This document shows positions 51,526 to 55,829 of a DNA stretch of 64,000 bases, in pieces (the first letter of the stretch is position 1; every line of letters starts with the position of its first letter). The translations under genes were made by a program, and so were the position numbers. The stretch comes from an uncultured Thiotrichales bacterium (GTDB lineage: Bacteria; Pseudomonadota; Gammaproteobacteria; CAIRSR01), in assembly GCA_903881315.1 (NCBI GenBank), contig CAIRSR010000122.1:1-64000 (forward strand), given 5' to 3'. The notes below the pieces were generated by a model. It did no database searches. It saw nothing but the letters and a program-made list of their open reading frames with translations, and was not told the origin of the DNA.

Positions 51526-53439
51526 ATGATCTTAGCAAACCGCCTTGATATCCCCGACAGCGCCGTCGCGTTGCTGTGGGATATGGACGGCGTTCTAATT
51601 GACAGCCTGACTTTTGACTACGAAGTATGCAACCAGATCCTGCAATCTCAGGTAGGCGCGGACGTTCGCATTCCGCATTCTCTCATAAAAGAGTTATTCC
51701 CTCTCGATATACATCAATTCTGGCAGAAGATTCTTGAACGGATCGGCGTGTCAGCAACCACTGAGGTGATTGCACGCCTAGCGACAAGTCACGACCTCGC
51801 AAGACAGGGTGCGCGCTTTCCATTAAATCCAGGCATTACCGAGATACTTGAGGCAGCTCGACGCCAGGGGTTACTTTTGGCGGTCGTCTCGAATAATCAA
51901 ACCGAACAGGTCAAAGAGATTCTTCATCATGCCGATCTGCTCAACTTCTTCGATGCCATCGTCGGCAACGACATCGAACACATCGCAAAGAAACCAGCAC
52001 CCGACACCTATTTGTTGGCGGCGAAGCTCCTCGTTGTCGATCCCGTGCGGTGCGTGGTGGTCGAAGACTCTTTGTTTGGTGGCGCCGCCGGGCGTTCTGC
52101 CGGGTGTTATACCATTGGCGTCGCAACCGGAGCGGATAGCTTCGCACAACTCAATGCCTCCCCTCTGATCGACTGCGCCTACACCTCTTTTGCGGATCGG
52201 GAGATTGTCTTCAGACCAGGCACAGTAACCGAGAAATTCATCGTCACACCAAATGAATTTGTCAGTCACATGCTTGAGCACTTGGCCTGGCGGCTCGGCT
52301 GCTCTATAACAGTCCGCTGGAACAATGCCGACTGGGTATCTTTGGGGCAAGCGGTGGGGACGACACTCGCCAAATTCCCGAGAAAGGCAGGCTCTGCCGC
52401 AGTCCTTGGCATGATTGATGACGGAAGTGCTGAGGTTCGTGTCACAACCAGCGACGAGCACACCCTCTCTATCCAGGGGACTGCCCAGGTCGATGTCGAC
52501 TGGTTCTTGGCGAGCCGTTGCGAACAGTTGTCATCCGGAAAACCCTTGGTGGATTTCCTCAAGGGAATGGCAGCCGCATTCCCCATGCGCCTGGATATCC
52601 TGGTTTGTAATTTCGAGGATCCTCACCATACCTGGGAGGGGATATTCCGATCGGTTGGCATCGCGCTGAACGCCATGGTGATGACGACGCTACCAGACAC
52701 CAGCATCACGCCCATTGGCCCGGTCGGGAACAGTGCGGATGCAGAAACCCGCCATTGGACGCTGGTTCACGAATCACCAATCGCCGTTGAATTGTTACGA
52801 AAAACCGCCGAAAGTGAGGTGCGGGTGGTGCTTGATTTCTCCCGCAACGGCCCACCCCAGTGCCATTTTGATGTCGCCAACTCGATTAACATAGACGGCC
52901 TCCCCGCTCTGCTAGAAGAACTCACCCACCAGGCACAGTGCCAATTAGAACTTTGGTTTAAGGCAACCAGGATCAATTCTAGTCATGTTGTCATGGAGGA
53001 CACCGGAATGGTCATTGGCCGCGCCTTGAAGACAATACTCATCCAACGCATGTTGCATTCCGGCATCAATGGCGCTGGCAGCAGTGTCACAACCAGTGAC
53101 GACCTTGGGGCAGCCCCAATTGGGGTTGGTCTTAGCATTGAAGGCAGAAAGTTCTGGACGTTCGTCCCCTTTCAGACAAATTATGCAGAGTTTCGACGAC
53201 GATTCCTCATTGGCCACACCATAGGAGCTGGTCTTTTCTCGGAGGATCTGGATGATTTTCTCGATGGGTTTGCGGGTGGAATCAGCGGAAGCATCATCGT
53301 GCATGTGCGCCGTACTATTTCTCCACAGGAGGGGTGGCCTTTAATCTTCCGCAGCCTGGGCCAGGCCATCCATGAGGCAATAACACCAAACCCTGCAAGA
53401 AAAGGGCTACCGCCAGGGGTAAAGGCGACTCTTGACTAA
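51526..53439 (+). CDS. HAD phosphatase fused to two divergent IGP-dehydratase (HisB-like) domains
   Basis: 637 residues. Residues 10-215 are a HAD phosphatase of the phosphoglycolate/beta-PGM type with all motifs: DMDGVLID (Asp19/Asp21), VVSNN, KKPAPD and VVEDS. Residues about 230-400 resemble IGP dehydratase: FVSHMLEHLAW (His248, His252) and DPHHTWEG (His367-His368), but the middle HHTVED motif is lost. Residues about 440-625 form a second IGPD-like copy that keeps part of the middle motif (SHVVMED, 486-492) and lacks the others. E. coli HisB is also a HAD-IGPD fusion, but with another HAD subtype and one IGPD domain. Likely acts in a histidine-like pathway with the HisC- and HisD-like genes. 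Confidence 0.75.
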   Translation: MILANRLDIPDSAVALLWDMDGVLIDSLTFDYEVCNQILQSQVGADVRIPHSLIKELFPLDIHQFWQKILERIGVSATTEVIARLATSHDLARQGARFPLNPGITEILEAARRQGLLLAVVSNNQTEQVKEILHHADLLNFFDAIVGNDIEHIAKKPAPDTYLLAAKLLVVDPVRCVVVEDSLFGGAAGRSAGCYTIGVATGADSFAQLNASPLIDCAYTSFADREIVFRPGTVTEKFIVTPNEFVSHMLEHLAWRLGCSITVRWNNADWVSLGQAVGTTLAKFPRKAGSAAVLGMIDDGSAEVRVTTSDEHTLSIQGTAQVDVDWFLASRCEQLSSGKPLVDFLKGMAAAFPMRLDILVCNFEDPHHTWEGIFRSVGIALNAMVMTTLPDTSITPIGPVGNSADAETRHWTLVHESPIAVELLRKTAESEVRVVLDFSRNGPPQCHFDVANSINIDGLPALLEELTHQAQCQLELWFKATRINSSHVVMEDTGMVIGRALKTILIQRMLHSGINGAGSSVTTSDDLGAAPIGVGLSIEGRKFWTFVPFQTNYAEFRRRFLIGHTIGAGLFSEDLDDFLDGFAGGISGSIIVHVRRTISPQEGWPLIFRSLGQAIHEAITPNPARKGLPPGVKATLD

Positions 53440-53457: not shown

Positions 53458-54541
53458 TTGATCCCAGTAAAACCCAACATCTGCGCCATTAATACCTACA
53501 CGACCCCGTGGGCCGCGCTCGATCGCACGGAATATCTGCGCTTAGATCTCAATGAAAGCACCCAGCCCTTACCAGAATATGTCCTGGAAAGCATGGTGCG
53601 GTTTATTCGAGATACCGGCGTAGAATGCTACCCCGATTACTGTGGGTTTTATGAGAAATTGTCTTCTTACTGTCCGGTTCCGGCAGACTGGCTGCTCGCA
53701 ACCAATGGTTCTGATCAGGGGATCGATGTCATTCTGCGAGCCTTCCTCGCCCCAGGAGACGAGATGGTAGTTGCTCGTCCTGAATTCGCGATGTTTGGCA
53801 ATATTGCCAACCTACTGGACGCCAAGATTGTCGGCGTACCCTACGCCGAACAGTTCCAATTTCCCTACGAAACCTTCCATGAGGCGGTCTCAGCAGCAAC
53901 CCGACTCATCGTCATCATTAATCCAAACAATCCGACCGGAACGCCGGTATCTTTAGAGTATATCGAATGGCTGCTCCTGAAATTTCCTACTATCCCAATC
54001 TTAGTAGACGAGGCCTATTACGAGTATACCAAGACCACCTCGCTAGATCTTTTAAAGCGCCACGATAACCTCATCGTGCTGCGCACCTTCTCCAAGGCAT
54101 TCGCCATGGCGGGACTGCGCATCGGTTATATCATCGCCCGACCAGAGCTGATTGCGCACTTCGAGAAGATTCGCGGCCCGTTTGCCGTCAATAGCGTTGC
54201 TCTGGCAGCAGCAACCGCCCAGATTGAAAACCAAGACCCTATGCAAAAGCACGTCGAAGAAGTCATGGAACGCTCGAAACCCTTTACCAGAGAATTCCTC
54301 AGCGCAAGCGGCGTATCCTTTAATCGAGGGTGCCGCGAACTTTTTCCTAATTGCCGCGCCAGAGACCGAAGCTTTTGTTTCTCATCTGCGATCACACAAG
54401 ATTCTGGTGCGCTCATTACACGGCCCGCGACTCGATGGCTGGATCCGCATGAGTCTTGGGAGACTATCAGAGATGCACCGGGTAAAAATTGCCATCACCG
54501 AATTTCTGTTAAAGGCGCAGGGGTCTTACTATGCAAGGTAA
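53458..54541 (+). pseudogene. HisC-like aminotransferase broken by a one-base insertion
   Basis: Starts at TTG 53458 (AAGGAAG upstream). PLP fold type I enzyme like histidinol-phosphate aminotransferase: LDLNESTQPLP, NGSDQGID, NPNNPTG, DEAYYEY and the PLP lysine at about 213 in TFSKAFAMAGLRIGY. At about 54322-54323 an extra A in TTTAATC shifts the frame; after it, EGAANFFLIAAPETEAFVSHLRSH and WIRMSLGRLSEM continue in the next frame to the stop at 54541, giving about 360 residues, the normal HisC length. The uncorrected frame runs to 54639. It may be a true mutation, a sequencing error, or a programmed shift. The stop overlaps the Sel1 gene start. Confidence 0.75.
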
Positions 54542-55829
54542 TGACAAAGACATGCGGCAGGATGACAATGATACGTCGAATTGGTTTTACAAAGCCGCCG
54601 AGCATGGTTATGCCGATGCCCAATGCAATCTGGGCGTAATGTATGCAGACGGCCAAGGTGTACCGCAGGATTATACAGAAGCAGCAAAGTGGTATCGCAA
54701 GGCCGCTGACCAAGGCTACTCCCGCGCCCAATTCAACCTTGGTTTGCTGTACGCTATGGGTCAGGGCATAACGCAGAGTTATGCAGAAGCAGCGAAATGG
54801 TATCGCAAGGCCGCTGAACAAGGGGATGCAAAGGCCCAATACCACCTCGCCATGCTATATGCCGATGGTCGGGGTGTGGCGCAAGATCACACAGAAGCCG
54901 CCGCTTGGTATCGCAAGGCCGCCGATCAGGGAGACGCCAACGCCCAAGATTGCCTCGGCGAGATGTACCACCTCGGGCAAGGTGTCGCGCAAAGTGATGT
55001 GGAGGCATTTAAATGGACGCGCAAGGCCGCCGAACAAGGCCATGCCAACGCACAGAACAGCATCGGCCTTATGTATAGAATTGGCCAAGGGGTAAAGCAG
55101 GATTATGCTGCGGCAATAAAATGGACGCGCAAGGCCGCCGCGCAAGGTAATATCGGCGCGCAAAACAACCTCGGGCTGATGTATCAAAACGGCCACGGCG
55201 TAGCGCAAGATGATGCAGAAGCGTTGAGGTGGTATCGTGAAGCTGCCGAGCGCGGCCACGCCACCGCGCAAAACAACCTTGGACTCATGTATAAAAATGG
55301 TCAAGGGGTAGAACAGGACGCTGCTGAGGCAGTAAAGTGGTATCGTAAGGCTGCTGAACAGGGAAATTGCATTGCACAATTTAACCTCGGCGTGATGTAT
55401 AAGAATGGCCAAGGTATCGCGCAAAGCGATGTGGATGCGTTAAAATGGTATCATAAGGCTGCCGAACAGGGAGATACCGATGCGCAATACAACCTTGGCG
55501 TCATGTTCAAGAATGGCCACGGCGTCAAACAGAATCTCACGGAAGCCGCGAAATGGTATCGCAAAGCCGCAGAGCAAGATGACGCCGATGCGCAATTTAG
55601 CCTTGGCGTTCTGTGCCAACAGGGAAAAGGGGTTGAGCAAGACTATGTTGAGGCGATGAAATGGTATCGCAAGGCCGCTGAACTGGGCCATGCGGAAGCA
55701 AAAAAGATATGCAGCAAGAACCCCGAGCGTAGCGCTACCAAGAAGCGAGGCACTGTTGGTGCGACACCAGGGAAACAACAGTCACCAGGGTTCTGGGCGA
55801 GTATCCTGGCAGCGATTCGTGGTAAGTAA
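54531..55829 (+). CDS. Sel1-repeat protein
   Basis: 432 residues, almost all tandem Sel1-like repeats of 36 residues (about ten full units, pattern A..NLG.MY..G.GV.QD..EA..WYRKAAEQG), from residue 15 to about 395. The end has a short basic then hydrophobic stretch (GFWASILAAIRGK). No signal peptide, so probably cytoplasmic. Sel1 repeats mediate protein-protein contacts. The start overlaps the corrected end of the HisC-like gene by 11 bp, placing it inside the his-like cassette. Confidence 0.92.
   Translation: MQGNDKDMRQDDNDTSNWFYKAAEHGYADAQCNLGVMYADGQGVPQDYTEAAKWYRKAADQGYSRAQFNLGLLYAMGQGITQSYAEAAKWYRKAAEQGDAKAQYHLAMLYADGRGVAQDHTEAAAWYRKAADQGDANAQDCLGEMYHLGQGVAQSDVEAFKWTRKAAEQGHANAQNSIGLMYRIGQGVKQDYAAAIKWTRKAAAQGNIGAQNNLGLMYQNGHGVAQDDAEALRWYREAAERGHATAQNNLGLMYKNGQGVEQDAAEAVKWYRKAAEQGNCIAQFNLGVMYKNGQGIAQSDVDALKWYHKAAEQGDTDAQYNLGVMFKNGHGVKQNLTEAAKWYRKAAEQDDADAQFSLGVLCQQGKGVEQDYVEAMKWYRKAAELGHAEAKKICSKNPERSATKKRGTVGATPGKQQSPGFWASILAAIRGK

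What the first reader, a model, noticed from the sequence alone, without database searches (positions are those of the whole stretch)
51526..53439. HAD plus double IGPD fusion with complementary loss of metal motifs
The first IGPD-like domain keeps HMLEH (248-252) and DPHHTWE (366-371) but not the middle HHTVED. The second keeps SHVVMED (486-492) but not the first or last. Normal IGPD builds two Mn sites from all three motif sets. The two copies may thus form one working site, or one copy may be structural. The HAD part has intact catalytic motifs and differs from the HAD of E. coli HisB.
Basis: partly seen in the sequence, partly recalled or inferred. Interest (0 to 1): 0.68.

Follow-up and report, generated by a model that had tools for sequence, protein, structure and literature searches.

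The report
Histidine enzyme with one split site
A bacterial histidine-making enzyme has been doubled within one chain, and each copy has kept only the half of the active site that its partner lost, so the two copies must work together; this fills an apparent gap in histidine synthesis in sulfur bacteria and others.

Summary
Window 51526-53439 encodes a 637-aa protein: a HAD phosphatase domain plus two imidazoleglycerol-phosphate dehydratase (IGPD) domains, A and B, that have lost complementary active-site motifs. It is a conserved family, not an oddity of one genome: 35 aligned tandem sequences (Thiotrichales, Beggiatoaceae, Desulfobacterota, Thermoleophilia, one Streptomyces, others) share the same pattern without exception.

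The loss follows the chain roles of the solved IGPD 24-mer. Domain A keeps what chain A gives to a site (H47, H169, H170, E173, D108). Domain B keeps what chains A' and C give (H73, E77, an acid at 145, R121, K201). One residue, catalytic E21, breaks the rule.

The tandem is the only IGPD found in 24 of 29 genomes, including the window's, which also carries HisG, HisA/F and HisD. Undivided single-domain relatives carry all the partitioned residues; one sits in a hisD-HAD-IGPD-hisH-hisA cluster. Most likely it is the organism's HisB with one composite site per chain, fused to a probable HAD-I histidinol-phosphate phosphatase. I found no description in the literature searched.

The parts
51526..53439 (+). 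hisB-like gene: HAD + IGPD domain A + IGPD domain B, 637 aa
51562..52140 (+). HAD subfamily I phosphatase domain (about residues 13-205), probable histidinol-phosphate phosphatase; D19, D21, S122, K156, E180/D181 invariant
   Evidence: 41% identical to a stand-alone HAD inside a his gene cluster
52210..52707 (+). IGPD domain A (residues 229-394), in the role of canonical chain A; lacks the first beta hairpin
   Evidence: Pfam IGPD 31.4 bits; AF2 pLDDT 96.0 and Foldseek hits to IGPD
52267..52281 (+). HMLEH 248-252: H248 = Arabidopsis H47 (Mn1 ligand), H252 at the Q51 position
   Evidence: 35/35
52411..52422 (+). MIDD 296-299: D298 = D108 (holds the catalytic water)
   Evidence: D298 35/35
52618..52638 (+). 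DPHHTWE 365-371: H367, H368, E371 = H169, H170, E173; R375 nearby = K177
   Evidence: 35/35
52756..53436 (+). IGPD domain B (residues 411-637), in the role of canonical chains A' and C
   Evidence: Pfam IGPD 32.8 bits; IGPD fold match TMt 0.80 in the two-domain model, above what A alone reaches with the same target
52798..52815 (+). RKTAES 425-430: E429 = E21, the one residue that breaks the partition
   Evidence: 35/35 in B, absent in A
52981..53001 (+). SHVVMED 486-492: H487 = H73, E491 = E77, D492 = D78; V488 stands at H74
   Evidence: 35/35
53140..53151 (+). EGRK 539-542: R541 = R121 (phosphate)
   Evidence: 35/35
53239..53259 (+). SEDLDDF 572-578: D577 at the H145 position (Mn2 ligand site)
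   Evidence: 35/35
53410..53433 (+). PPGVKATL 629-636: C-terminal loop, K633 = K201 (phosphate)
   Evidence: 35/35
53458..54639 (+). hisC-like aminotransferase, 18 bases downstream; frame disrupted near 54300
   Evidence: TIGR01141 216 bits over residues 6-279; intact in close relative L033
56185..57486 (+). hisD, the only HisD found in the genome
   Evidence: TIGR00069 461.7 bits

Best explanation
The protein is the organism's HisB: an IGPD fused to a HAD-I phosphatase that probably serves as histidinol-phosphate phosphatase. The IGPD part is an internal heterodimer. Domain A plays chain A and domain B plays chains A' and C of the canonical site, so each chain contributes to one composite di-metal site instead of two. 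The site that the other half would have formed has lost its metal ligands. It arose once, by tandem duplication of a divergent undivided IGPD (already without H74 and R99), followed by complementary loss and fusion to a neighbouring HAD gene. Shown: domain content, invariance, partition by chain role, undivided relatives, sole IGPD in the genome, linkage to hisC and hisD. Inferred: catalysis, the metal, the HAD substrate, whether the site forms within or between chains, and the oligomer.
For: (1) Partition by chain role. In solved IGPD, Mn1 = H67A', H40A, H162A, E166A and Mn2 = H66A', E70A', H138A', H163A, with K170A, D101A, R114C and K193C around the substrate (PMC6029752; Arabidopsis equivalents in PMC4509728). 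In 35 tandem sequences domain A keeps H47, D108, H169, H170, E173 and a base at H55 and K177 in 35/35, and B has lost these; B keeps H73, E77, D78, R121, K201 and an acid at 145 in 35/35, and A has lost these. (2) Undivided relatives (Monoglobus L082, L122, Thermoleophilia L067/L068) hold H47, H73, E77, H169, H170 and E173 in one domain and share the H74 and R99 losses. (3) Tree: tandem A, tandem B and undivided together separate from canonical with 100/100; A and B each 100/100. (4) Undivided L122 lies in hisD-HAD-IGPD-hisH-hisA, is that genome's only IGPD, and its HAD is 41% identical to the window HAD. (5) The tandem is the only IGPD in 24 of 29 genomes, including the complete Paraconexibacter antarcticus genome; HisG, HisA/F and HisD are present in the window's genome. 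(6) Linked to hisC and/or hisD in most loci. (7) AF2 pLDDT 90.6, pTM 0.91 for A+B; IGPD fold.
Against: E21, placed on chain A in the solved site, is kept only in B (E429) because A lacks the first hairpin. The fourth Mn1 ligand H74 is Val, and phosphate-binding R99 is Gly, so the site is not canonical. Five genomes have the tandem beside a canonical HisB, most without the HAD, and three of them with an SDR and an ABC transporter in the same operon, so the family may have a second function. No coordinates, so no ligand distances. The hisC next door is out of frame in this assembly.
Confidence: 0.82

Rival explanations
1. One IGPD copy is the enzyme and the other is only structural.
For: Many duplicated enzymes keep one active copy (general knowledge); site residues are lost from each copy.
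Against: Neither copy holds a full site: A has no H73/E77, B has no H47/HHxxE, and both remainders are invariant in 35/35.
Confidence: 0.04
2. The tandem is an IGPD-like paralogue with another substrate, for example part of an uptake pathway, and histidine comes from elsewhere.
For: In five genomes a tandem coexists with canonical HisB; L048, L049 and L057 place it with HisD, an SDR and an ABC transporter. Thermoleophilia L067/L068 put an undivided relative beside a lyase resembling histidine ammonia-lyase. H74 and R99 are lost.
Against: In the window's genome and 23 others it is the only IGPD, HisG and HisA/F are present in the window's genome, and an undivided relative sits in a his cluster.
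Confidence: 0.1
3. The composite site forms between A of one chain and B of another, not within one chain.
For: Canonical sites join three subunits around 2-fold axes of a 24-mer, and domain B must also play the chain C role.
Against: pTM 0.91 for a single chain suggests a defined A-B contact, but which contact it is was not visible.
Confidence: 0.35
4. Assembly or annotation artefact, or a decaying gene.
For: The neighbouring hisC is out of frame; the genome is a 221-contig draft.
Against: Intact in 30 or more genomes, including a complete one, with invariant site residues.
Confidence: 0.01

Closest known systems
Canonical IGPD (HisB/HIS3/HISN5, PF00475), 24-mer with di-Mn site
   Same: Same fold in both domains; same ligand positions once A and B are combined.
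   Different: Two diverged copies in one chain with complementary loss. A published survey of 535 IGPDs found both HHxxE motifs in all (PMC7284861); here neither copy has both. H74 is Val and R99 is Gly.
E. coli-type bifunctional HisB (HAD + IGPD)
   Same: N-terminal HAD phosphatase fused to IGPD.
   Different: HAD is subfamily I (beta-phosphoglucomutase-like), not the HAD-III histidinol phosphatase; IGPD is duplicated and split.
Undivided divergent IGPD of Monoglobus (L082), L122, L067/L068
   Same: Same clade (100/100), same H74 and R99 losses, next to hisD and a HAD gene in L082 and L122.
   Different: One domain with all motifs; HAD not fused. The Monoglobus copy is annotated only as a hypothetical protein.
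Thiomargarita HisC-like-HAD-IGPD-IGPD frame (L043)
   Same: Same HAD-IGPD-IGPD core.
   Different: An aminotransferase is joined in the same 991-aa frame.

Membership tests
IGPD (PF00475) | Pfam gathering score | tested here: met
   A 31.4 and B 32.8 bits against 27
IGPD (PF00475) | IGPD fold | tested here: met
   A alone: 29 hits with E<=0.001, all IGPD. A+B: top 29 hits all IGPD, with TMt 0.80 to 9m85 where A alone gives 0.60, hence B
IGPD (PF00475) | Two HHxxE motifs in one domain | tested here: not met
   Neither domain has both; one per domain, and the first is SHVxxED
IGPD (PF00475) | All eight Mn ligands | tested here: not met
   Six of eight identical over A+B, position 145 is Asp, H74 is Val
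IGPD (PF00475) | 24-mer and Mn-dependent dehydratase activity | not testable with these tools
   needs protein
NCBIfam HisB equivalogs | Curated cut-off | tested here: not met
   Best 44 bits against 231; undivided relatives also below
E. coli-type bifunctional HisB | HAD-III histidinol phosphatase domain | tested here: not met
   Best matches TIGR02009 and others of HAD subfamily I
HAD-I phosphatases | DxD, S/T, K, E/D-D catalytic motifs | tested here: met
   Invariant in 23 of 23 rows
Histidinol-phosphate phosphatase | Acts on histidinol phosphate | not testable with these tools
   Only position in his loci; no HisN above cut-off in the window's genome; HisJ-type and HAD-III-type not searched genome-wide

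The most novel reading that the evidence does not exclude
A dehydratase that has become an obligate internal heterodimer with half the sites of its ancestor, a reshaped metal centre (H74 lost, Asp at 145), and a second pseudo-site that kept E21 and other invariant residues and may now do another job such as regulation.
Probability: 0.3. Interest if true: 0.78.

Novelty: new variant of a known kind. Interest (0 to 1): 0.62.

Why it matters
IGPD is a textbook enzyme and herbicide target whose double HHxxE motif was reported as universal. This family shows how a homo-oligomeric site can be divided between two fused copies along subunit roles, with the undivided form still living in a his gene cluster. 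It also explains apparent hisB gaps in Thiotrichales, Beggiatoaceae, cable-bacteria relatives and some Actinomycetota, where standard models do not name the gene. [quoted passage not shown]

Tried and rejected
Structural-copy-only and pseudogene readings: rejected by complementary invariance. Canonical hisB elsewhere in the genome: none found. Plasmid carriage: only the undivided Monoglobus relative on a 518-kb replicon. Phage records were not searched. Direct distance measurement: model coordinates are not released by the tool. PDB sequence search found only weak IGPD matches. Papers: six searches gave no tandem or split IGPD. Hairpin swap as an explanation of E21: B's better match (TMt 0.80) suggests that its hairpin is in the normal place, so this is left open. 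The A4 search in Actinomycetota mostly returned canonical IGPDs; the 30 loci fetched from it all show canonical motifs and served as the comparison set.

Full report
What is there. The ORF at 51526-53439 (+) encodes 637 aa. Pfam finds HAD_2 at 17-199 and two IGPD stretches; each IGPD half passes the Pfam cut-off alone. The downstream genes are hisC-like (18 bases away), a Sel1-repeat protein, hisD and yebC. The genome is a draft; the nearest named relative is an uncultured Thiotrichales bacterium (L033).

It is a family. Close relatives are 68-72% identical, and G035 is 50%. A scan of genome contigs gave 25 loci in Thiotrichales, Beggiatoaceae (Thiomargarita, Parabeggiatoa), Desulfobacterota (including Candidatus Electronema), Thermoleophilia, one Streptomyces and one alphaproteobacterium. 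A phylum-level sample added nine genomes of one further genus. Sampling shows that the spread is patchy: one of 149 genomes of the Paraconexibacter class and one of 395 of the phylum of L035 carry the full tandem; in both cases that one is the reference genome used as the centre of the sample.

The partition. I aligned 35 tandem proteins, split into A and B, with 36 canonical IGPDs, 5 undivided relatives and Arabidopsis IGPD1. The solved Acanthamoeba enzyme assigns the ligands to chains: Mn1 = H67A', H40A, H162A, E166A; Mn2 = H66A', E70A', H138A', H163A; substrate contacts K170A, D101A, R92C, R114C, S191C, K193C (PMC6029752). In Arabidopsis numbering, domain A keeps H47, D108, H169, H170 and E173, with Arg at H55 and K177, all 35/35, and B keeps none of these as a set. 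Domain B keeps H73, E77, D78, R121 and K201, with Asp at 145, all 35/35, and A keeps none of these as a set. So the division follows the subunit roles of the canonical interface. Position 145 is Glu in 30 of the 36 canonical sequences as aligned, so an acid there is not strange.

Deviations. H74 is Val in B (L, V or T in undivided relatives), R99 is Gly or Ala, S199 is Gly. E21 is invariant in B (E429) and absent in A, whose model lacks the first hairpin; in the canonical site E21 is on chain A (PMC4509728). This is the one unexplained residue.

Structure. AF2 on the two IGPD domains gave pLDDT 90.6 and pTM 0.91; domain A alone gave pLDDT 96.0. Among Foldseek hits in PDB, the 29 best are all IGPDs for both models. 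The A+B model matches 9m85 with TMt 0.80 where A alone reaches 0.60, so the better match must be B. pTM this high suggests a defined contact between A and B. No coordinates are released, so I could not measure distances.

Origin. Undivided relatives carry H47, H73, E77, H169, H170 and E173 in one domain: Monoglobus L082 (hisD, IGPD-like, HAD in a row; annotated hypothetical protein), L067/L068 and L122. In the tree, A, B and undivided together separate from canonical at 100/100, and A and B are each monophyletic at 100/100. L122 lies in hisD-HAD-IGPD-hisH-hisA (hisD, HisH and HisA above NCBIfam cut-offs), is its genome's only IGPD, and its HAD is 41% identical to the window's. This ties the clade to histidine synthesis and suggests the pre-fusion gene order.

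Function in this genome. PF00475 finds nothing but the tandem in the window's genome and in 24 of 29 genomes in all, including the complete Paraconexibacter antarcticus genome and an isolate Streptomyces; the list counts G035 and G037 separately although they show the same match coordinates and appear to be one genome. HisA/F-family matches are in all 28 genomes examined, although in G046 only weak ones. HisG is in 13 of 16, including every genome known to be at least 90% complete. HisD is in all 28, and in the window's genome it is the neighbour of the tandem. In the Streptomyces, HisA/F-family genes, tandem, hisC and hisD share one contig. HisN is below cut-off in the window's genome but above it in the Streptomyces, so the HAD as histidinol phosphatase is likely but not proven.

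Second context. Five genomes (G047, G051, G052, G055, G060) have both a canonical HisB and a tandem in a shorter frame; L044, L048, L049 and L052 lack the HAD, and L057 is a truncated or broken copy. L048, L049 and L057 show hisD, SDR, ABC transporter, tandem in a row. Site residues are kept in the four complete ones, so a second use of the same chemistry is possible.

Novelty. Six literature searches found no tandem or split IGPD; the library misses most subscription journals. PMC7284861 reports the HHxxE motifs in all of 535 IGPDs. I rate it a new variant of a known kind.

Noticed in passing
window 53458-54639: hisC-like gene goes out of frame near 54300; the C-terminal part continues in another frame (ORF 54152-54541). 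The same gene is intact in L033. Draft error or real lesion is not decided.
   Followed up: partly
L043 3852-6830: Thiomargarita: an aminotransferase resembling HisC is joined in frame to HAD-IGPD-IGPD (991 aa).
   Followed up: no
L048, L049, L057: HAD-less tandem IGPD in a conserved operon with HisD, an SDR and an ABC transporter, in genomes that also have canonical HisB: possible second pathway.
   Followed up: partly
L067, L068: Undivided IGPD relative next to a lyase resembling histidine ammonia-lyase and a zinc alcohol dehydrogenase in Thermoleophilia.
   Followed up: no
L069 1447-2139: Another single-domain IGPD paralogue (THTIAED, NPHHVWE), next to an amino-acid permease-like gene.
   Followed up: no
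L082 5911-6531: Monoglobus pectinilyticus protein annotated as hypothetical is a divergent IGPD between hisD and a HAD gene.
   Followed up: yes
window 54531-55829: Sel1-repeat protein with ten repeats lies between hisC and hisD.
   Followed up: no
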